Below, one piece after another: positions 11,448 through 63,953 of a DNA stretch of 64,000 bases (position 1 is the first letter of the stretch; every line of letters begins with the position of its first letter). Source of the stretch: Jannaschia seohaensis (lineage in GTDB: Bacteria; Pseudomonadota; Alphaproteobacteria; Rhodobacterales; Rhodobacteraceae); assembly GCF_900116765.1 (NCBI RefSeq), contig NZ_UETC01000002.1:310001-374000 (forward strand). Direction: 5' to 3'. Both the position numbers and the translations under genes were made by a program. The notes beneath the pieces were generated by a model. It saw only the letters and a program-made list of their open reading frames with translations. It did no database searches and was not told where the DNA came from.

Positions 11448-12301
11448 CAGGCGGCGTCTCCGTCCTTGTCACGCGTCAGGTAGACGACCGCCAGCACCGC
11501 CGCCGTGACGATCAGCGTGGTGAGAACGGTTATCTTCATTTCTTGATTGAACGGCAAATCGATCTCGTCGAAGAACCATGTCCGGCTGGCTTCCCGCGCT
11601 GTCTCGGCGTCGGTCACGAGCATCGCGATGCCGAGCGCGGCGTAGTAGATCGCGAGGTTGATCGCGAAGGCCACCGAGGGCAGCGCATAGACCAGCTGGT
11701 TCCAGAGCGTCGGCTTCTTCACCTTCGCCAGCATCCGCAGATAGGCGAACCAGGTCGCGACGGCGACCAGCAGGAACGCCACGTTCACAAAGCTCTTGAG
11801 GAAGTAGAGGCCGTGGAGGCCGTTCGGGCTGCTCGATCCTTCGCCGGAGGCGATGGATTGGAGCGCATAGGCCAGCGTCACGTCCCAGCATAGGATGATG
11901 AAGGGCAGGAACAGCCAGGACAGGCCGAATATGTCGATCCAGCGCTGCTTCCGCTCCGGATAGCCGTCATAGAAGATGTCGACGCGCACATGGGAGTTCG
12001 TCGTGACCGCATAGGCCACGCCGATCAGGACGGCGGCGCCGTAGAGCCACCATTGCAGATCGTCCATCCAGGCCTGGTTGCCGGGTCCGATGCCGATCCG
12101 TCCGAGGTTCCGCAGTAGCACCTGCGCCACGATCACCACCATCAGGATGGGAAAGATCCAGGCGAAGAAGTTCGAGACCTGCACGATGAAGCGGTCGCCG
12201 CGATTATGCTCGGCGCGACCGACCTCACCGGGGTCGGAGATGGCGACGACCGGGCCGCCCGCGTCCTGCGCGACCGTCTCGGCCTGAATAGCATCGCTCA
12301 T
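11447..12301 (-). CDS. dctQ: TRAP transporter small permease (DctQ)
   Basis: Four-helix small membrane subunit that pairs with DctM. The 284-residue product is longer than the usual 160-200 residues, with a hydrophilic N-terminal extension of about 35 residues and extra hydrophobic segments, again typical of the TakP-like group. Conserved small-permease features are VLLRNLG and WWLYGAAVLIGVAYAVTTNSHVRVD. The ATG at 12301 has GAGGGG upstream; longer readings run into the intergenic hairpin. It lies 138 bases after dctP, with a palindrome in the gap. Confidence 0.9.
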   Translation of the reverse strand: MSDAIQAETVAQDAGGPVVAISDPGEVGRAEHNRGDRFIVQVSNFFAWIFPILMVVIVAQVLLRNLGRIGIGPGNQAWMDDLQWWLYGAAVLIGVAYAVTTNSHVRVDIFYDGYPERKQRWIDIFGLSWLFLPFIILCWDVTLAYALQSIASGEGSSSPNGLHGLYFLKSFVNVAFLLVAVATWFAYLRMLAKVKKPTLWNQLVYALPSVAFAINLAIYYAALGIAMLVTDAETAREASRTWFFDEIDLPFNQEMKITVLTTLIVTAAVLAVVYLTRDKDGDAA

Positions 12302-57537: not shown

Positions 57538-58512
57538 TCAGACCCGGGCATTCATGGGATAGACGATGTCCATCACGCCCTCTTCGAAATGGTCGAAGCT
57601 CTTGCGCCAATCGGAGCCCGGCCACATCACGTCCATCTGCCCCGCTTTCGGGCGGTAGGCGGCCGTGTAGAGCGTGCCGAACCCCTCTCCGAAGGCGACC
57701 GAATAGAGCGGTGGACGCAAGAAAGAGGCGATGAATTTCTCCGGGGTTTCCGGATGGAGCGTCAGACGGTGCAACAGGAAGCGTTCGCGCTCGACGGTGG
57801 CGGTCAAGCGGGCGTGGCTCTGCCACTCGACGCGGTCCTGATGGTTGGTGGCGACGGCGGCGTGGCTCAGGACCGTGGGCCGATCGGGTGCCAGATAGGC
57901 CGTCAGATAGCGGCGGCGGGCGTCGAGCACGGTCACGTTGTAGCTCATGTGGCAGGGCACCCGTTCGAGCACCCGGCCCGCTTCCTCCGCCGTCTCGCAG
58001 GTTTGCAGGATGTAGCGCAGGATCAGCGGCACGCCGAAGCCCTCCCCGACCGCGCGCCGGCCGCCGAAGGTCAGCGAGACGGCCAGCCCCGCGTCGTTCA
58101 TCCCATCGACGAGGCCGAAGAGACCGTCCGCCATTCCCATCACGCCGCGCCCTTGCCACCGCGTCTTCAGGAGAACGGCGTCGAAGGCGGTCACGTCGTA
58201 GTCGTAATTGCGCACGAGCAGCGGCTCTTCGCCGGGCCAGATCGCCTGGCTGCATCCGGCGAGATAGCGCGGCGGGCAATAGTAGCTCAGGAACCGGGCC
58301 TGGCTGTCGCCACCCCCGACCAGCTCGCACAGTTCCTCATAAAGGGGCACGATCTCGGGCATGTGCGTGCGTAGGGCGGTGAGGCTCTCGCGGTAGGTGG
58401 GCCGGCCGCTCAGGCCCTCGCGCGACCACCATCTCCGATAGGCGGGCCAATACTCGTTGAAGAGCGCCGCCCATTTCGGCCCGGGTGAGTCCTCACTGAC
58501 TGCGCGGAACAC
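57538..58512 (-). CDS. C45-family autoproteolytic acyltransferase/hydrolase
   Basis: Ntn-hydrolase related to isopenicillin-N acyltransferase and the insect amine-conjugate hydrolase Tan. The 324 residues include YYCPPRYLAGCSQAIWPGEEPLLVRNYDYD, where the Gly-Cys pair near residue 86 is the expected self-cleavage site and the cysteine becomes the N-terminal nucleophile. GVMGMADGLFGLVDGMNDAGLAVSL follows as in the family. It is the last gene of the leftward amine-cluster operon, 132 bases after the ATP-grasp gene with a strong hairpin in the gap. It may form, transfer or hydrolyse an amide made by that ligase. Confidence 0.85.
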   Translation of the reverse strand: MFRAVSEDSPGPKWAALFNEYWPAYRRWWSREGLSGRPTYRESLTALRTHMPEIVPLYEELCELVGGGDSQARFLSYYCPPRYLAGCSQAIWPGEEPLLVRNYDYDVTAFDAVLLKTRWQGRGVMGMADGLFGLVDGMNDAGLAVSLTFGGRRAVGEGFGVPLILRYILQTCETAEEAGRVLERVPCHMSYNVTVLDARRRYLTAYLAPDRPTVLSHAAVATNHQDRVEWQSHARLTATVERERFLLHRLTLHPETPEKFIASFLRPPLYSVAFGEGFGTLYTAAYRPKAGQMDVMWPGSDWRKSFDHFEEGVMDIVYPMNARV

Positions 58513-58590
58513 TGTGCCATCCTTCTCTGCCGCTTGGGGTCGCAGCCGGGCCGCCTGCTGGGCCGCGTCTCGCGCCGGCCCAAGGATCCA

Positions 58591-58619
58591 GGCCGGGCCG
58601 GGGGATGCCCGGCCCGGCC
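58591..58619 (-). terminator. Strong hairpin between ATP-grasp and C45 genes
   Basis: Perfect 12-base-pair GC stem (58591-58602 with 58608-58619) around a GGATG loop, 26 bases after the ATP-grasp stop. No T tract follows on the minus strand, so partial termination or message stabilisation is more likely than a full stop; it would let the C45 gene be expressed at a different level. Confidence 0.6.
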
Positions 58620-58644
58620 AAGAAACGGCCCTCGATCATGTCTC

Positions 58645-60096
58645 CTACATGATCTTGAACGCGTAATCCTCCGCCGCGCGGGCCGACGGCAGGGGCCGGG
58701 CCGTATAGGCCGATTTGATCCCGTCGATCCACTGTTTCGCTTTCGGCGTGAGTTGGAAGTTCTTGGTCATGGACCGCCCCCGCGTCACCAGGATGCCGAG
58801 GTCCGCGCCCTCATAGCGGTAGTCTCCGACATTGGAAATCCGCAGGAAGAAGGCTTCGTCTTCGGTTTCCACGGCGCGGCGGTGATAGTCGAACCGGTCA
58901 TAGACGACCTGCCCATCCGGCAGCATCTTGTAGATGCCGGACTGGGGCGCGCTGGTGATGATGTCGACATTGTCCTCGGTGTGCTTGATGACCATCTGCG
59001 ACCAGCTGTCGATCATGTCCGGGTCCGCCCAGCGGGCGTTCAGCTCATCGACATCGAGCGAGAACGGTTTCTTCGAGAACTCCAGCAGGTGGAACAGGAA
59101 GAGCGGCGCGTCCGCATGGGCGAAGGCGGCGTGATTGGTCATCGAGGACGCGCCGGTGATCCGTGGGTTGAGTTCCCCCAGCCAGATGTCGTCGTTCTTC
59201 TTGTCGATCAGGAAATCCAGCTCGAAATAGCCGCGATAGCCCTCCTTGCGGAGCTGCTCGCCGAACTGGAAGGTCAGTTCCCGCGCCTGCTGCCGCTGCT
59301 TGGGCGAGAAGGCGGTGGAGAAGATCTCGTTGCCGCACCAGCCGCCGCGATAGGGGGTCAGCTCCTTGAAGCCCACGAGTTCGGTCATGAGCGGGCCGAC
59401 GATGGTCCCCTGCGAGGTGGCGCAGGCCTCGATCGCGGAGCCCCGGCAATCGATCCGCTTCATGATCTTGATCTCGCCTTCGCCGACGATCTCGTGCTCA
59501 TGCTTGCGGAAATCAGCCTCCGAATTGATGAAGAAGGTCGTGTGCCCGCTGTCGCCGAAGGCCGATTGCAGCACGAGGTCGGTGCCGATGCCGGCCTTCT
59601 CGGCCGTCTCGACCAGGTTCTCCCATCCGGTGACCTCGGCCAGGGTGTTGGGCACCGAGGGCACACCCGCCTTGTTGCCGACGCGGACAGTCTCGATCTT
59701 GTTGTCCATCGACTGGCGTAGCTTGGCCTTGGGGAACCAGACCTCGCCGCCCAGTTCCTTGACCAGCTTTTCGGTCTTTTCGTCGAACATCAGGAAGACG
59801 AATTTCGGCTTTCCGCCGCGCGCCGTCACATAGTCGATCACCTCCTTGTGGGAGAGGAGGTAGTTGTTGATGTCCTCGATCGACTGGAACTCGTCATGGG
59901 GCAGCTCTGACGGGCAGAGCACATTTGGATGGCGCCCATCGAAGCAGTCCATGTAGCAGATATACTTGAAGTTCTTCACCCATTCGTCGATCCCGAGCAG
60001 GTTGAAGTTGGTCGCCGAGACGAAGTAGATCGGGTCCTTGTTGGTGTGAAAGTACCGCCGGATTTCCGAGATGTTGCTCAGTGTTTTCTTAGGCAT
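58645..60096 (-). CDS. ATP-grasp ligase (biotin-carboxylase-like)
   Basis: A 483-residue stand-alone ATP-grasp enzyme. The N-terminal third is a pre-ATP-grasp domain (DPIYFVSATNFNLLGIDEW). The nucleotide-binding part spans DLVLQSAFGDSGHTTFFI, and EIKIMKRIDCRGSAIEACAT, and the metal site is YFELDFLIDKKNDDIWLGELNPRITGASSMTNHA (E...N pair). There is no biotin-carrier or transferase domain, so fatty-acid-type carboxylation is unlikely. Amide or peptide-bond formation on an amine is the better guess. The gene has noticeably lower G+C and more lysine/asparagine than neighbours. It lies 83 bases after the decarboxylase gene. Confidence 0.8.
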   Translation of the reverse strand: MPKKTLSNISEIRRYFHTNKDPIYFVSATNFNLLGIDEWVKNFKYICYMDCFDGRHPNVLCPSELPHDEFQSIEDINNYLLSHKEVIDYVTARGGKPKFVFLMFDEKTEKLVKELGGEVWFPKAKLRQSMDNKIETVRVGNKAGVPSVPNTLAEVTGWENLVETAEKAGIGTDLVLQSAFGDSGHTTFFINSEADFRKHEHEIVGEGEIKIMKRIDCRGSAIEACATSQGTIVGPLMTELVGFKELTPYRGGWCGNEIFSTAFSPKQRQQARELTFQFGEQLRKEGYRGYFELDFLIDKKNDDIWLGELNPRITGASSMTNHAAFAHADAPLFLFHLLEFSKKPFSLDVDELNARWADPDMIDSWSQMVIKHTEDNVDIITSAPQSGIYKMLPDGQVVYDRFDYHRRAVETEDEAFFLRISNVGDYRYEGADLGILVTRGRSMTKNFQLTPKAKQWIDGIKSAYTARPLPSARAAEDYAFKIM

Positions 60097-60179
60097 ATCG
60101 GTCCTGTTGCTCCCGTCTTCGGTCCTTGTGCCGGCCCACTCGAGCCGTCCTCGTTTGTCGCATTTGGTCAGCGTCGCCT

Positions 60180-62921
60180 TCAGACGCTGACCACGGTCTT
60201 AAGCGCCTCCGGCGTGAAAACCCGGAGGCCCAGATCCGCCCGGAACCCGTGGATCTCGCTCACGTCGAGCGCGCGCATGAACGCCATGATTTCAGGGCTG
60301 ATCACCTGTCCGGGCACGAGGATGGGAAAGCCCGGCGGATAGGGGATGATGAAGCTCGACGACACCAGCTCCTCGCCCGCCTTCACCCGCTCGTGGGTCT
60401 CTTCGAGCGACAGATAATCGCAATTCTCTTCGTCATAGGCGAGGAAGAACGCGGTCCGGATGTCGCCCTCCGGCGTCGCCCCATCGGTGCGGAACGCGTC
60501 GTGAAACCGCGAGAAATCCGGAAGCGGCGGCACATGTTCGACCAGTGCCGCGACCCGGTTCTCGAAGGAGCGCCGCTCCATCTTGGACGCATCGTCGAGC
60601 AACTCGTCGAGTTCCCGCGCGATTTCCACCAGAACCTCGATCAGATAGGCGACCGACGAGCGCGTCGTGCCGATATTGGTCATGAAGAGCACGGTGTTGC
60701 GCGACGTCTTGTTGATCTGGATCCCGTATTTGTCCATCAGGATCTTGGTCTTGAACGTGTCCCCGTCCCAACCCGTTCCGCCGACGGCGAGGGTGATGCG
60801 GGTCGGGTCCAGGACGAATTCGTCCTGATTCCAGACCTCCCAGATGTCCGACCAGCCGTGCTCAGGGTCGAAATAGCTCTCGACCCCGCTCTGACGGTGC
60901 TCGGCAGGTATCATGTCCTCGGCGGTCAGAATCTTGAAATACTTGTTCAGAAGCGGATGCGTCGAAACGGCGCGCCGGATCGACATGGCGCTTTCCACCT
61001 GCCGCTGCGTGAACTCGAAGCCTTCGAGCTCGACCTGTCGCCGCCCCACATCGAGCGAGGCGATGATCTGGTAGTTCGGAGAGGTCGAGGTGTGGGTCAT
61101 GTAGGCTTCGTGGAAGGACTGCTCCACTTCACCTTTGAAGTCCTGATCGTTGACATGGATCATCGAGCCCTGGCGCAGTGAGGTCAGCGTCTTGTGGGTC
61201 GATTGCGTGGCATAGACCCGGACCCGCGCGTCGGGCGGCGGCACCAGCCTTGTCTCCAGCCAGGCCTCCTCGTCGGCGTTCTCCAGGGCCTTCTGCTGAT
61301 CCTCATAGGCGGCGGCGGCCTCCGGCGTCCGCAACGTCTCGCGCAGGGTATTGGCCACGCCCATCGCCGTCCGCTGCCGGTAGGTCGGCCCGAAGCGGGC
61401 AAAGGCGAACCAGGCCTCGTCCCAAAGGAAGATCAGGTCCTTCTTGATGGCGAGGCATTCCTCCATCACGCGCTGCACATTGTAGACGAGCCCGTCGAAG
61501 GTGCAGTTCGTGAGCAGGACCATGCGCACGCGGTCCAGCTTGCCCTCGGCCTTGAGCTTCAGCAGGTGATGCTTGATCTCGCGCGTGGGCACCGCGCCAT
61601 ACATCGAATACTCGCTCAGCGAGTAGCTATCCATGTAGACGACCCGCGCCCCGGCCAGGACCATGCCGTAATGGTGCGACTTGTGGCAGTCGCGGTCGAC
61701 CAGCACGATATCGCCGGGCCGCACCAGCGACTGCACCACGATCTTGTTGCAGGTCGAGGTGCCGTTGGTGGCGAAGAAGGTCTGCTTGGCGCCGAAGGCC
61801 CGCGCTGCCATGTCCTGCGCTTCCTTGATCGGGCCGCGCGGCTCCAGCAGGCTATCGAGCCCGCCGGACGTGGCCGAGGTCTCGGCAAGGAAGATGTTGG
61901 GCCCGTAGAACGCCCCCATATCCTGGATCCAGTGCGACCGGCTGATCGACTTGCCCCGGCTGATCGGCATGGCGTGGAACACCCCGGTGGGCTGGCGCGA
62001 ATACTCCTTGAGCGCGGTGAAGAAGGGCGTCTTGTAGCGCCGGTTCACGCCCCGCAGGATGTTGAGATGCAACTCCAGGAAGTCCTCCTGGTTGTAGAAC
62101 ACTCGACGGCAGCGACCGAGATCGAGCCCCGCGATATCCTCGGCGGAGCGGTCGGTGACCAGATAGGCGTCGAGCTCAGGCCGGATCTTGGCGATCAAGC
62201 GGCACGTCTCGGGACCGTATTCATGCGGGTCGATATCGTCCACGCCCTCATTGCCCACGGGCCGGAGATAGCGGTTGAGGATCGGCAGATCGTTGCGCGA
62301 CTTCAGCCGGAGCCCGGGCCGAACGACGACCGCCTGAACGTTGTGATTGAAGAGGATCCCGATCAGCGCGTCCTCGAGCGAAGGCACGACCACGGGCTCG
62401 TAGATGAACGGATCCTCCGCCCGGCGCATCCTTTGCAGATTGGCGCGCAGGAACCGTTCCTGCTGCTCGTTGACCTCATCGACGATCATCACCTCGAAAT
62501 AGGGCCGCCCCAGGGCGCGCGCCTCGGGCGAGAGCGAGGCTTCGTCCTCGTAATCCTCGTTGTCGACCTCGTCGGTCCCCAGCGGGATGCGCCGCCGCCG
62601 ATAGGCCCCGGAGGTCAGCGCCCGCGCAACGCGGCGCACCCCGACGGCAAGCTCTTCGGCATTTCCGTGGTTGAGATGCCGCCGCAGCATGTCGAAGGCA
62701 TCGCGCCCGGGAAACGCCCAATAGGTCTCGATCGGGGTCAGTTGCTCGAAGAGTTCCTCGGCGCGCAGCAGCAGGCGCTTGAGCTGCGCGCTCTCCGGCT
62801 CAGCGGAGTGCAGCCCCTCCGCCACTTCCCGCAGGACCGACCATCGATCCGCCCGCAGCTGTGTCGCGCTATAGTAGTCGCGGATCGAGGACAACTTTCG
62901 TTCTGAAGACTGGAGGTTCAT
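60180..62921 (-). CDS. Long Orn/Lys/Arg-type PLP decarboxylase
   Basis: Fold-type I PLP decarboxylase of the bacterial inducible class. At 913 residues it is longer than CadA or AdiA (715-755) because of an N-terminal helical region of about 150 residues before the response-regulator-like wing domain. The core has FFATNGTSTCNKIVVQSLVRPGDIVLVDRDCHKS, the PLP-ring aspartate in FLWDEAWFAFARF, and the Schiff-base lysine in ATQSTHKTLTSLRQGSMIH. The C-terminal domain ends in PYPPGFPILVPGQ, typical of the family. The product would be a diamine, agmatine or similar amine. AAGGGAG precedes the ATG at 62921. Confidence 0.92.
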   Translation of the reverse strand: MNLQSSERKLSSIRDYYSATQLRADRWSVLREVAEGLHSAEPESAQLKRLLLRAEELFEQLTPIETYWAFPGRDAFDMLRRHLNHGNAEELAVGVRRVARALTSGAYRRRRIPLGTDEVDNEDYEDEASLSPEARALGRPYFEVMIVDEVNEQQERFLRANLQRMRRAEDPFIYEPVVVPSLEDALIGILFNHNVQAVVVRPGLRLKSRNDLPILNRYLRPVGNEGVDDIDPHEYGPETCRLIAKIRPELDAYLVTDRSAEDIAGLDLGRCRRVFYNQEDFLELHLNILRGVNRRYKTPFFTALKEYSRQPTGVFHAMPISRGKSISRSHWIQDMGAFYGPNIFLAETSATSGGLDSLLEPRGPIKEAQDMAARAFGAKQTFFATNGTSTCNKIVVQSLVRPGDIVLVDRDCHKSHHYGMVLAGARVVYMDSYSLSEYSMYGAVPTREIKHHLLKLKAEGKLDRVRMVLLTNCTFDGLVYNVQRVMEECLAIKKDLIFLWDEAWFAFARFGPTYRQRTAMGVANTLRETLRTPEAAAAYEDQQKALENADEEAWLETRLVPPPDARVRVYATQSTHKTLTSLRQGSMIHVNDQDFKGEVEQSFHEAYMTHTSTSPNYQIIASLDVGRRQVELEGFEFTQRQVESAMSIRRAVSTHPLLNKYFKILTAEDMIPAEHRQSGVESYFDPEHGWSDIWEVWNQDEFVLDPTRITLAVGGTGWDGDTFKTKILMDKYGIQINKTSRNTVLFMTNIGTTRSSVAYLIEVLVEIARELDELLDDASKMERRSFENRVAALVEHVPPLPDFSRFHDAFRTDGATPEGDIRTAFFLAYDEENCDYLSLEETHERVKAGEELVSSSFIIPYPPGFPILVPGQVISPEIMAFMRALDVSEIHGFRADLGLRVFTPEALKTVVSV

Positions 62922-62984
62922 CCGGCCGTACTCCCTTTGGCCAAGCCTGCATGTCCGTGTCGGCACGCGGGTCGCTTTGTCGTG

Positions 62985-63953
62985 TCAGTCCGATCCCATT
63001 TTGCCGCCGACGACGGAAAAGGCCGGTGGCGGGGCCTCTGGCTCCCGGCTGTGTTCGAGCGCGGTCCTTGGATCGGCGGCCCCGAGGCCGCTCTGCGCGC
63101 CTTGCTTCGGCGTCTCGAGGGGACCGAGGGTGTGAAGGTAGGCATCCGCCCCGCTCTGCCGGTCATAGACCGAGAACTCGGCCTCGCGATCGCGGAAGGA
63201 TTTCAGCACCTGCCCCAGCCCCCGCAGACCGGTCTCCCGCTGACGCCGCACCTGGTCCATGTCCACTTCGATCGGGAACATGTCCTCCTGACCGGCGGAC
63301 TGGTGCAGAACGGTCGCCGTCGGATCGACGACGATCGAGCGGCCGACGCCCCCCGCCGCCAGCCCGTTGACCGCGAAGACGTAGCATTGGAACTGCGCCG
63401 CGGTGGCCCGCGCGATGGACAGCTCCGCGTCGCGGTCCGTCGTGCCGGTCAGCACGGGGTTGAGCAAGACCTCGACCCCCTGGCTGGTCAGCTGCCGCGT
63501 CGTCTCCGGGAACCAGATGTCATAGCAGATCGACAATCCAAAGCGGCCGACATCCGGCACGTCGAAGATGCAGAATTCGGTCCCTGCCTCAACGCCCTCC
63601 TCGTAGGGCCGGAACGGAAACATCTTGCGATAGGTCGCGACGATCTCACCCTCGGGATTGATCACCACGGAGGTGTTGTAGACCTTGCCGTCCGCCGTCT
63701 TCTCGAACATCGAGCCGGGGATTAGCCAGATCCGATGGCGCTTCGCGTCCTCGCGGAAGCTGTCGAGCGTCTCGTTCGGGAAGAACTGCGCATATTGATG
63801 GAGCGGGCCGAACGGCGCCAGCTCGCTGAAGAGCACCATCTGCGTCCAGGGAAAGCGCGCCATCAGGATGTCGAGGCGGTGCCGCATGCCCTCCACGTTG
63901 GAGTGGAGGGCGGAGACGTGCATCTGAACGCCGGCGATTGCGAAAGGTGTCAT
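62985..63953 (-). CDS. Carbon-nitrogen hydrolase (nitrilase superfamily)
   Basis: A 322-residue amidase-type enzyme with the Glu-Lys-Cys triad visible: glutamate in MVLFSELAPFG, lysine in ATYRKMFPFRP and cysteine in GLSICYDIWFPETTRQL. Known relatives act on N-carbamoyl-putrescine, omega-amides or deaminated glutathione. The last ~40 residues are a Pro/Ala-rich tail. It is the first gene of the operon, 63 bases before the decarboxylase gene. The T-rich 47 bases at the window end lie upstream of its ATG and may be part of the promoter. Confidence 0.88.
   Translation of the reverse strand: MTPFAIAGVQMHVSALHSNVEGMRHRLDILMARFPWTQMVLFSELAPFGPLHQYAQFFPNETLDSFREDAKRHRIWLIPGSMFEKTADGKVYNTSVVINPEGEIVATYRKMFPFRPYEEGVEAGTEFCIFDVPDVGRFGLSICYDIWFPETTRQLTSQGVEVLLNPVLTGTTDRDAELSIARATAAQFQCYVFAVNGLAAGGVGRSIVVDPTATVLHQSAGQEDMFPIEVDMDQVRRQRETGLRGLGQVLKSFRDREAEFSVYDRQSGADAYLHTLGPLETPKQGAQSGLGAADPRTALEHSREPEAPPPAFSVVGGKMGSD

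What the first reader, a model, noticed from the sequence alone, without database searches (positions are those of the whole stretch)
57538..63953. Four-gene operon that may build and remodel an amine conjugate
A carbon-nitrogen hydrolase, a 913-residue Orn/Lys/Arg-type decarboxylase, a stand-alone ATP-grasp ligase and a C45 Ntn-acyltransferase/hydrolase lie in one direction with gaps of 63, 83 and 132 bases. Seen: all four have intact catalytic motifs (E-K-C triad; SxHK lysine; ATP-grasp E...N; Gly-Cys self-cleavage site). Known: C45 enzymes act on amides of amines, ATP-grasp ligases make them, and nitrilase-family amidases open carbamoyl or omega-amides of polyamines. Inference: the operon decarboxylates a basic amino acid, joins the amine to an acyl or aminoacyl group and trims the product. 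I know of no described pathway with this set.
Basis: partly seen in the sequence, partly recalled or inferred. Interest (0 to 1): 0.75.

Follow-up and report, generated by a model that had tools for sequence, protein, structure and literature searches.

The report
Conserved decarboxylase, ligase, amidase gene module
Four enzymes of unknown joint purpose travel together through many bacteria, and their gene neighbours suggest that they make and break a small amide built around GABA or glutamate rather than around a polyamine.

Summary
In detail: the four genes lie at the stated places with intact catalytic motifs. They are kept together: all four on one strand in 73 of 75 eligible Rhodobacterales loci, and DEC, GRASP and C45 recur in 10 of 10 regions fetched from a phylum-wide sample. 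C45 models as an isopenicillin-N-acyltransferase-like amidase (Z 29.4). The ATP-grasp protein lacks two bicarbonate-site residues of biotin carboxylase. The decarboxylase is probably not a lysine/ornithine/arginine enzyme: the glutamate proposed to hold the distal amine is asparagine in 111 of 111 non-identical rows, and two arginines appear. Three of five stand-alone relatives that I examined sit beside aspartate-alanine antiporters. In two lineages an Arg/Orn-to-GABA operon takes the decarboxylase's place beside the module. The product both routes can share is GABA; GABA transaminase and a PuuR-like regulator are frequent neighbours. Best reading: a GABA/glutamate-centred make-and-break amide pathway, logically like Puu or butirosin side-chain assembly. 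Partner and direction are unknown. Four searches of one open-access library for the set found no description.

The parts
62985..63953 (-). CNH: carbon-nitrogen hydrolase (nitrilase superfamily), triad E44-K110-C143; accessory member of the module
   Evidence: PF00795 113.9 bits; triad invariant in 19 of 19 aligned; no match at E <= 1e-30 in G635, G649, G073, G045, which keep the other three genes
60180..62921 (-). DEC: 913-aa fold-type-I PLP decarboxylase of the Rv2531c type; PLP lysine K577; pocket N737, R583, R741 where canonical Lys/Arg/Orn enzymes have Glu and no Arg
   Evidence: PF01276 264.7 bits; PDB 9n0n/9n0o E about 1e-249; alignments and counts
58645..60096 (-). GRASP: stand-alone ATP-grasp protein, probably a ligase (NF005096/PRK06524, named 'biotin carboxylase' in NCBIfam), E308-N310-R312
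   Evidence: NF005096 748.8 bits, cut-off 684; AlphaFold model pLDDT 72.6, pTM 0.78; ATP-grasp fold, Z 20.0-21.8 to PurK-type, biotin carboxylase, PylC and BesA entries
57538..58512 (-). C45: Ntn acyltransferase/amidohydrolase with predicted self-cleavage at Gly86-Cys87
   Evidence: NF040521 177.5 bits, cut-off 85; model pLDDT 88.0; isopenicillin N acyltransferase Z 29.4, rmsd 3.3 over 302 residues

Best explanation
The operon is a GABA/glutamate-centred amide module. DEC decarboxylates an acidic amino acid, most likely glutamate, to GABA (inferred). GRASP is an ATP-grasp amino-acid ligase that joins glutamate or GABA to an amine in an omega-type (gamma-glutamyl- or 4-aminobutyryl-) amide (fold shown by model, substrate inferred). 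C45 matures by cutting before Cys87 (inferred from fold and motif) and hydrolyses or transfers that amide, as isopenicillin N acyltransferase does with the delta-(alpha-aminoadipyl) amide (recalled). CNH is an optional amidase. GABA transaminase and succinate-semialdehyde dehydrogenase, found beside part of the loci with a PuuR-like regulator, drain the GABA. The logic is that of the gamma-glutamylated putrescine (Puu) pathway or of butirosin side-chain assembly (both recalled), with other protein folds. The partner, and whether the net direction is synthesis or catabolism, are not known.
For: Pocket: the Glu equivalent to LdcI Glu526 is Asn737 in 111 of 111 non-identical rows (106 module-type, 5 stand-alone; L093, L132 and L141 are copies of one gene), Arg583 in 111 of 111, Arg741 in 109 of 111; two canonical-type controls have Glu, Ser and Leu. 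AdiA and LdcI also have Glu. Rv2531c has Asn and the first Arg but Ile at the second. Glu526 as a proposed substrate binder: PMC5607190, passages seen. Stand-alone DECs beside AspT antiporters in Ensifer, Rhodobacter and Phyllobacterium, 3 of 5 examined. Replacement: GRASP, C45 and CNH without a DEC nearby lie in or beside an operon of agmatinase family, 5-guanidino-2-oxopentanoate decarboxylase, aldehyde dehydrogenase, D-amino acid dehydrogenase and ornithine-racemase-like genes in Shinella, Roseateles XES5 and Sinorhizobium RAC02 and, with 53-62% identity, in the distant genome G687, which has no DEC match at E <= 1e-30. GABA is the one product common to that route and to a single amino acid decarboxylation (inference). 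Neighbours: GabT-type aminotransferase near 31 of 57 and PuuR-like regulator near 30 of 57 full-flank loci (identification); SSADH in L054; glutamate-dehydrogenase-family genes in L118, L120 and L157 and proline-to-glutamate PutA in L154. C45 structure.
Against: No substrate was measured. The role of Glu526 in the text that I saw rests on docking and a cited proposal. Arg741 is not universal (Pro in L118, His in L142/L159 of one genome, Ile in Rv2531c). Two of five stand-alone DECs (L165, L168) have no AspT nearby, and in Ensifer the antiporters may serve the adjacent aspartate 4-decarboxylase. Roseateles XES5, which carries the DEC-less cluster, has a DEC elsewhere on the same plasmid, about 7 kb from arginase and ornithine cyclodeaminase genes. 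In L129 the module sits inside an ectoine-degradation cluster, whose link to GABA is unclear. The GabT-type gene is not found near 26 of 57 full-flank loci. G000 also has a PF00282 decarboxylase of unsettled substrate. The GRASP model cannot separate carboxylases from amino-acid ligases. GRASP and C45 acting on the same amide is inferred only from their pairing.
Confidence: 0.4

Rival explanations
1. Capped-ornithine catabolism: GRASP caps the delta-amine of ornithine (or of arginine-derived amines) with gamma-glutamate; DEC decarboxylates the capped amino acid to gamma-glutamyl-putrescine (or the racemase/D-amino acid dehydrogenase/keto-acid decarboxylase set does the equivalent); transaminase and aldehyde dehydrogenase give gamma-glutamyl-GABA; C45 releases GABA and glutamate.
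For: Would explain the loss of the amine-binding Glu and the gain of Arg in DEC, the interchange with the ornithine-racemase/arginase-like set, class-III aminotransferase and aldehyde dehydrogenase neighbours and the PuuR-like regulator.
Against: The same DEC pocket occurs in stand-alone DECs (5 of 5), three of them beside AspT antiporters, with no GRASP annotated in those stretches; guanidino intermediates would not need a cap.
Confidence: 0.2
2. One reading: DEC makes putrescine, cadaverine or agmatine from a basic amino acid, GRASP conjugates the diamine, C45 and CNH trim the conjugate.
For: Family name and fold; arginine-catabolic genes in the DEC-less variant; arginase and ornithine cyclodeaminase genes about 7 kb from the stand-alone DEC of Roseateles XES5; PuuR-like regulator.
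Against: Proposed amine-binding Glu replaced in 111 of 111 rows, Arg gained; no diamine-making enzyme was recognised in the DEC-less operon; CNH far below the N-carbamoylputrescine amidase cut-off. G000 has two PF02784-domain genes that could include an ornithine decarboxylase, though one may be diaminopimelate decarboxylase, so this point is weak.
Confidence: 0.2
3. The module degrades or makes a stress or osmolyte compound related to ectoine or aspartate (DEC: aspartate to beta-alanine), with GRASP forming a beta-alanyl or aspartyl amide.
For: L129 lies inside a DoeA/DoeB/EhuR cluster and L128 has similar neighbours by eye; a stand-alone DEC neighbours ectoine genes in Phyllobacterium; aspT and aspartate 4-decarboxylase beside DEC in Ensifer; Usp near 21 of 57 loci.
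Against: No ectoine genes were recognised in the other loci that I read; the DEC-less arginine operon yields GABA, not beta-alanine.
Confidence: 0.12
4. GRASP is an ordinary biotin carboxylase subunit and the four genes are only neighbours.
For: NCBIfam name NF005096; weak profile similarity to biotin carboxylase domains of solved carboxylases (best E 7.6e-5); fold match Z 21.0 to biotin carboxylase.
Against: G000 has its own AccC above cut-off and three further biotin-carboxylase-like genes, and the accC model does not list GRASP at E <= 0.001; Q294 and E296 (bicarbonate site) and K159 (ATP lysine) of E. coli biotin carboxylase (roles and numbering recalled) align with T314, A316 and Q177; no biotin carrier or carboxyltransferase gene recognised in the operon; linkage in 73 of 75 loci.
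Confidence: 0.03

Closest known systems
Rv2531c-type decarboxylase (PDB 9n0n, 9n0o, 9n0p)
   Same: Full-length homologue of DEC, 834 bits over residues 17-908; same Asn in place of the proposed amine-binding Glu
   Different: Activity unknown (PMC12910592, passages seen); second Arg is Ile; its gene neighbourhood was not examined
Canonical Orn/Lys/Arg decarboxylases (LdcI, AdiA, ODC)
   Same: PLP fold, THK lysine, aspartate of the WDEAW-type motif
   Different: Glu526-equivalent replaced by Asn, extra Arg residues, longer N-terminal part
Isopenicillin N acyltransferase (C45; 2x1c, 2x1d, 2x1e)
   Same: Fold Z 29.4, 28.6 and 28.8, clearly above the next family (23.6); conserved Cys at the chain start
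   Different: 13% identity; fungal enzyme of penicillin making (recalled); substrate of C45 unknown
BesA, PylC and L-amino acid ligases (ATP-grasp)
   Same: Same fold, Z 20.0 (BesA, rmsd 3.4) and 20.9 (PylC)
   Different: 8-10% identity, within 2 Z units of biotin carboxylase and PurK-type enzymes; substrate unknown
Puu pathway (gamma-glutamylated putrescine to GABA; recalled)
   Same: PuuR-like regulator and GABA transaminase beside the module; ligase plus amide hydrolase logic
   Different: Ligase is ATP-grasp, not glutamine-synthetase fold; hydrolase is Ntn, not class-I glutamine amidotransferase (Puu folds recalled); regulator below the PuuR cut-off (145.3 against 211)
Butirosin side chain (BtrJ, BtrK; folds and steps recalled, genes named in passages of PMC11405602)
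   Same: ATP-grasp ligase plus PLP decarboxylase making a GABA unit for an amide
   Different: Butirosin route uses a carrier protein; none recognised in this operon
Arginine transamination network of rhizobia (PMC7268258, passages seen)
   Same: Arginine/ornithine to GABA chemistry resembles the DEC-less variant
   Different: GRASP and C45 were not mentioned in the passages I saw

Membership tests
Orn/Lys/Arg decarboxylases with basic substrate | PF01276 domain and PLP lysine | tested here: met
   264.7 bits; K577 in 113 of 113 non-identical rows, 2 controls included
Orn/Lys/Arg decarboxylases with basic substrate | Glu that is proposed to bind the distal amine (LdcI Glu526) | tested here: not met
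   Asn737 in 111 of 111 non-identical rows; Glu in 2 of 2 canonical-type controls
Orn/Lys/Arg decarboxylases with basic substrate | Activity on Lys, Orn or Arg | not testable with these tools
   needs assay
Biotin carboxylase | ATP-grasp fold with E/N/R motif | tested here: met
   E308-N310-R312 invariant in 32 of 32; fold model
Biotin carboxylase | Bicarbonate-site residues Q294 and E296 (roles and numbering recalled) | tested here: not met
   align with T314 and A316 against the genome's own AccC (profile Neff 1.3)
Biotin carboxylase | Score with the accC model TIGR00514 | tested here: not met
   GRASP place not among the 6 matches at E <= 0.001
NF005096 / PRK06524 | Score above cut-off 684 | tested here: met
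   748.8 bits
C45 acyltransferase/hydrolase (isopenicillin N acyltransferase type) | NF040521 and PF03417 cut-offs | tested here: met
   177.5 against 85; 104.1 against 23.2
C45 acyltransferase/hydrolase (isopenicillin N acyltransferase type) | Ntn fold with Cys nucleophile at start of the beta chain | tested here: met
   C87 in 31 of 31; Z 29.4 to 2x1c_A; matches to many mature Ntn chains start at model residue 87
C45 acyltransferase/hydrolase (isopenicillin N acyltransferase type) | Autoproteolysis and amide substrate | not testable with these tools
   needs protein chemistry
N-carbamoylputrescine amidase (TIGR03381) | Score above cut-off 410.25 | tested here: not met
   66.5 bits
Nitrilase superfamily | E-K-C triad | tested here: met
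   E44, K110, C143 in 19 of 19
Puu pathway | PuuR score above cut-off 211 | tested here: not met
   145.3 bits
Puu pathway | Glutamine-synthetase-fold ligase PuuA in the operon | not tested
   no such gene was recognised among the ORFs read, but no PuuA model was run on the locus or genome
Butirosin-type side-chain assembly | Carrier protein in the operon | not tested
   none recognised among the ORFs read; short genes were not searched for specially

The most novel reading that the evidence does not exclude
DEC and its stand-alone relatives, including the structurally solved but functionally unassigned Rv2531c type, form a new branch of the Orn/Lys/Arg decarboxylase fold that acts on acidic amino acids. 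With GRASP and C45 it runs an undescribed cycle that stores GABA or glutamate as a small amide and releases it again, used from marine Rhodobacterales to rhizobial symbiosis plasmids.
Probability: 0.25. Interest if true: 0.8.

Novelty: new variant of a known kind. Interest (0 to 1): 0.6.

Why it matters
A tightly kept enzyme set spread through several classes of proteobacteria has no assigned chemistry that I could find and carries a misleading label ('biotin carboxylase'). If the GABA reading holds, it gives a new GABA pathway, a substrate class for a decarboxylase family with solved structures but no known activity, and a possible new amide metabolite. The substitution of an arginine/ornithine-to-GABA operon for the decarboxylase turns an open-ended puzzle into a short list of substrates to test.

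Tried and rejected
Basic-amino-acid decarboxylase: set back by the pocket counts (the 127 held repeats of the same genes, so one search removed identical rows). Ordinary biotin carboxylase: set back. N-carbamoylputrescine amidase role of CNH: score too low. Solved-structure searches by sequence gave nothing for GRASP alone, only weak biotin-carboxylase-type matches for its profile and nothing significant for C45, so both were modelled. The GRASP fold search could not choose between carboxylases and amino-acid ligases. A second PLP decarboxylase family (PF00282) has one member in G000 and PF02784 two; their substrates were not settled. Literature: of 10 answered searches in one open-access library, four were aimed at the set (the last by accession-like names only) and found no paper on it; the others sought Rv2531c, rhizobial loci, Glu526, AspT or butirosin. 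The nodule-competition paper PMC8407117 (passages seen) concerns another ATP-grasp group. PMC2922099 (passages seen) describes other ATP-grasp operons. The first background scan for sigma-54 sites had a faulty pattern and is replaced. In one search, 5 of 80 loci were left out for short flanks and 23 of 80 for the neighbour counts. The 80 loci are the best of 309 and are close relatives of one another; distant cases come, of which G618, G875 and G961 (cut genes) were not fetched as regions. Results against: L033 lacks C45 downstream and L039 lacks a local DEC (the latter genome has a DEC elsewhere); several rhizobial copies are split or cut; a paired sigma-54/NifA-type site precedes DEC in only 2 of 5 rhizobial loci.
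Full report
What is there. The window is contig 17, bases 310001-374000, of a 4.84-Mb genome; the nearest named relatives of its GRASP protein are Rhodobacterales. On the minus strand lie CNH (62985-63953), DEC (60180-62921), GRASP (58645-60096) and C45 (57538-58512). Pfam and NCBIfam confirm the families: CN_hydrolase and OKR_DC_1, NF005096 'biotin carboxylase' (748.8 bits, cut-off 684) and C45 proenzyme NF040521. Upstream of the window edge the same strand carries a Usp gene (named by eye), a fused TRAP permease (TIGR02123), a TAXI binding protein (TIGR02122) and an XRE-cupin regulator nearest to PuuR (145.3 bits, below the cut-off 211); divergent from them are a GABA transaminase (TIGR00700, 548.4 above 506.65) and a PRK07483-type class-III aminotransferase.

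Conservation. A genome-collection scan with GRASP gave 309 relatives, of which the best 80 were kept. Of 75 loci with enough flank, 73 have all four genes on one strand and 69 in the same order; exceptions are L033 (no C45) and L039 (no local DEC). Among 57 loci with full flanks the GabT-type aminotransferase (at least 50% identity to the window strain's) is near 31, the PuuR-like regulator near 30, TAXI near 24, TRAP near 23, Usp near 21. In a phylum-wide draw 207 of 398 genomes have some match to the NF005096 model, mostly other ATP-grasp proteins, and 11 of 398, G000 included, hold a full-length GRASP (510 bits and above). In the 10 other regions fetched, DEC, GRASP and C45 lie together in 10 of 10 and CNH in 8 of 10 (in L132 C45 and CNH are on the other strand). 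Two class-wide draws matched 9 of 321 and 9 of 337 genomes. Of 11 regions fetched from them, C45 lies within a few kb of GRASP in 11, DEC in 10 (two cut by contig ends), and CNH in 6 (two others cut by contig ends). CNH has no match at E <= 1e-30 in G635, G649, G073 and G045 but is present elsewhere in G542. So GRASP and C45 are the core, DEC nearly so, and CNH is optional. In L158 and four annotated rhizobial loci (L119, L120, L123, L124), which lack CNH beside the module, an amidase-family gene lies within about 15 kb; in L118 the same by eye.

Gene order varies (CNH-GRASP-C45-DEC in L129 and L131, DEC-C45-GRASP-CNH as read along L128), so linkage seems kept by selection rather than by recent common descent alone (inference).

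The decarboxylase. Its best solved relative is Rv2531c (834 bits). A 2026 review calls Rv2531c a probable amino acid decarboxylase of unclarified activity (PMC12910592, passages seen). In canonical enzymes a glutamate in the motif VEKTG (Glu526 in LdcI) is proposed to bind the substrate (PMC5607190, passages seen: docking and a cited proposal; that it holds the distal amine is recalled). In DEC the motif is QINKTSRN. After removal of identical rows, Asn737 is in 111 of 111 (106 module-type and 5 stand-alone), Arg583, six residues after the PLP lysine, in 111 of 111, and Arg741 in 109 of 111; three of the 111 rows (L093, L132, L141) are copies of one gene. Two canonical-type enzymes of one Sinorhizobium medicae locus, aligned as controls, have Glu, Ser and Leu there. 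This suggests a carboxylate in place of an amine at the far end of the substrate (inference). Of five stand-alone DEC loci that I read, three (Ensifer, Rhodobacter, Phyllobacterium; about 49% identity) lie beside annotated AspT aspartate-alanine antiporters and two (Roseateles XES5, S. meliloti ml66) do not. G000 has two genes of the fold-III Orn/Arg decarboxylase domain, at least one of which may be diaminopimelate decarboxylase.

The exchange. Shinella, Roseateles XES5 and Sinorhizobium RAC02 (90-97% identical, so one lineage) and the distant genome G687 (53-62% identical) hold GRASP, C45 and CNH in or beside a run of amino acid permease, agmatinase family (above the TIGR01230 cut-off), 5-guanidino-2-oxopentanoate decarboxylase (above cut-off), aldehyde dehydrogenase, D-amino acid dehydrogenase and an ornithine-racemase-like protein (393.3 bits, below the cut-off 480), which in Shinella ends in a weakly arginase-like part. 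From established biochemistry this set turns arginine or ornithine into GABA. G687 has no DEC match at E <= 1e-30. Only the plasmid records of Shinella and RAC02 were searched and have none; XES5 has one at 779 kb on the plasmid, GRASP being at 225 kb. The one compound that both this operon and a single amino acid decarboxylation can give is GABA (inference). Neighbours agree: GabT and SSADH (L054), glutamate-dehydrogenase-family genes in L118, L120 and L157, PutA in L154.

GRASP and C45. GRASP's model (pLDDT 72.6, pTM 0.78; the five models ranged from 49.1 to 72.6) is an ATP-grasp fold, with a PurK-type enzyme (Z 21.8), biotin carboxylases (21.0), PylC (20.9) and BesA (20.0) close together. 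Aligned to the genome's own AccC, Q294 and E296 of the bicarbonate site and the ATP lysine K159 are replaced by T314, A316 and Q177 (roles and E. coli numbering recalled; the profile is shallow). An amide ligase is therefore likelier than a carboxylase, but this is inference. C45's model (pLDDT 88.0) matches isopenicillin N acyltransferase at Z 29.4, with the next family at 23.6. That enzyme acts on the omega-amide of an alpha-amino dicarboxylic acid (recalled), which is the chemistry of a gamma-glutamyl amide.

Mechanism and confidence. Shown: linkage, motifs, folds by model, pocket changes, gene exchange. Inferred: DEC makes GABA from glutamate (about 0.55); GRASP makes and C45 breaks an amide of GABA or glutamate (about 0.45 given that); CNH is an accessory amidase. 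Direction and partner are open.

Context. On rhizobial symbiosis plasmids DEC-GRASP-C45 lies beside nifHDKEN (L123) or about 10 kb from nifA and nifB (L119, where C45 is cut). In S. meliloti SM11 a sigma-54-type site with a NifA-type upstream element lies about 209 bases before the start of the DEC match, and in L119 about 520 bases before the annotated start; L120, L123 and L124 have no such pair there. Paired sites occur 7 times in 5.2 million strand-bases of fetched DNA, all in rhizobial loci. Several rhizobial copies are split or cut, so the module is not always kept there.

Noticed in passing
L118 (NC_017327.1) about 11580-11702 and L119 about 11550-11643: Sigma-54-type site with a NifA-type upstream element before DEC in 2 of 5 rhizobial loci; 7 such pairs in 5.2 million strand-bases, all in rhizobial loci. 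In L119 the site is about 520 bases before the annotated DEC start.
   Followed up: partly
L119, L120, L123 and hits H24-H32: Rhizobial copies of DEC, GRASP or C45 are often split, shortened or fragmentary, suggesting recent decay in some symbiosis plasmids.
   Followed up: no
L129 3949-18293: The four-gene module sits between ectoine genes (EhuR-type regulator, DoeA, DoeB; an Lrp-type gene by eye) and an SSADH-like dehydrogenase plus class-III aminotransferase.
   Followed up: partly
L116 18785-20572: Ornithine-racemase-like protein whose C-terminal part scores weakly with an arginase model (44.7 bits, residues 459-569): a possible racemase-arginase fusion.
   Followed up: no
L133 3482-5653: Urea transporter fused to an M23 peptidase domain upstream of a DEC-GRASP-C45 set.
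   Followed up: no
L054 5284-6104: A glyoxalase-fold gene and a 116-residue protein without Pfam match lie just before the module in Ruegeria; by eye similar pairs occur in L154 and L158.
   Followed up: no
L120 6148-9975 and L124 5418-9237: Radical-SAM RiPP-type genes, with a Nif11-like leader peptide gene in L120, close to the module on Rhizobium plasmids.
   Followed up: no
L115 8856-10475: FMN-binding glutamate-synthase-family gene between GabT and the module in Roseobacter ponti.
   Followed up: no
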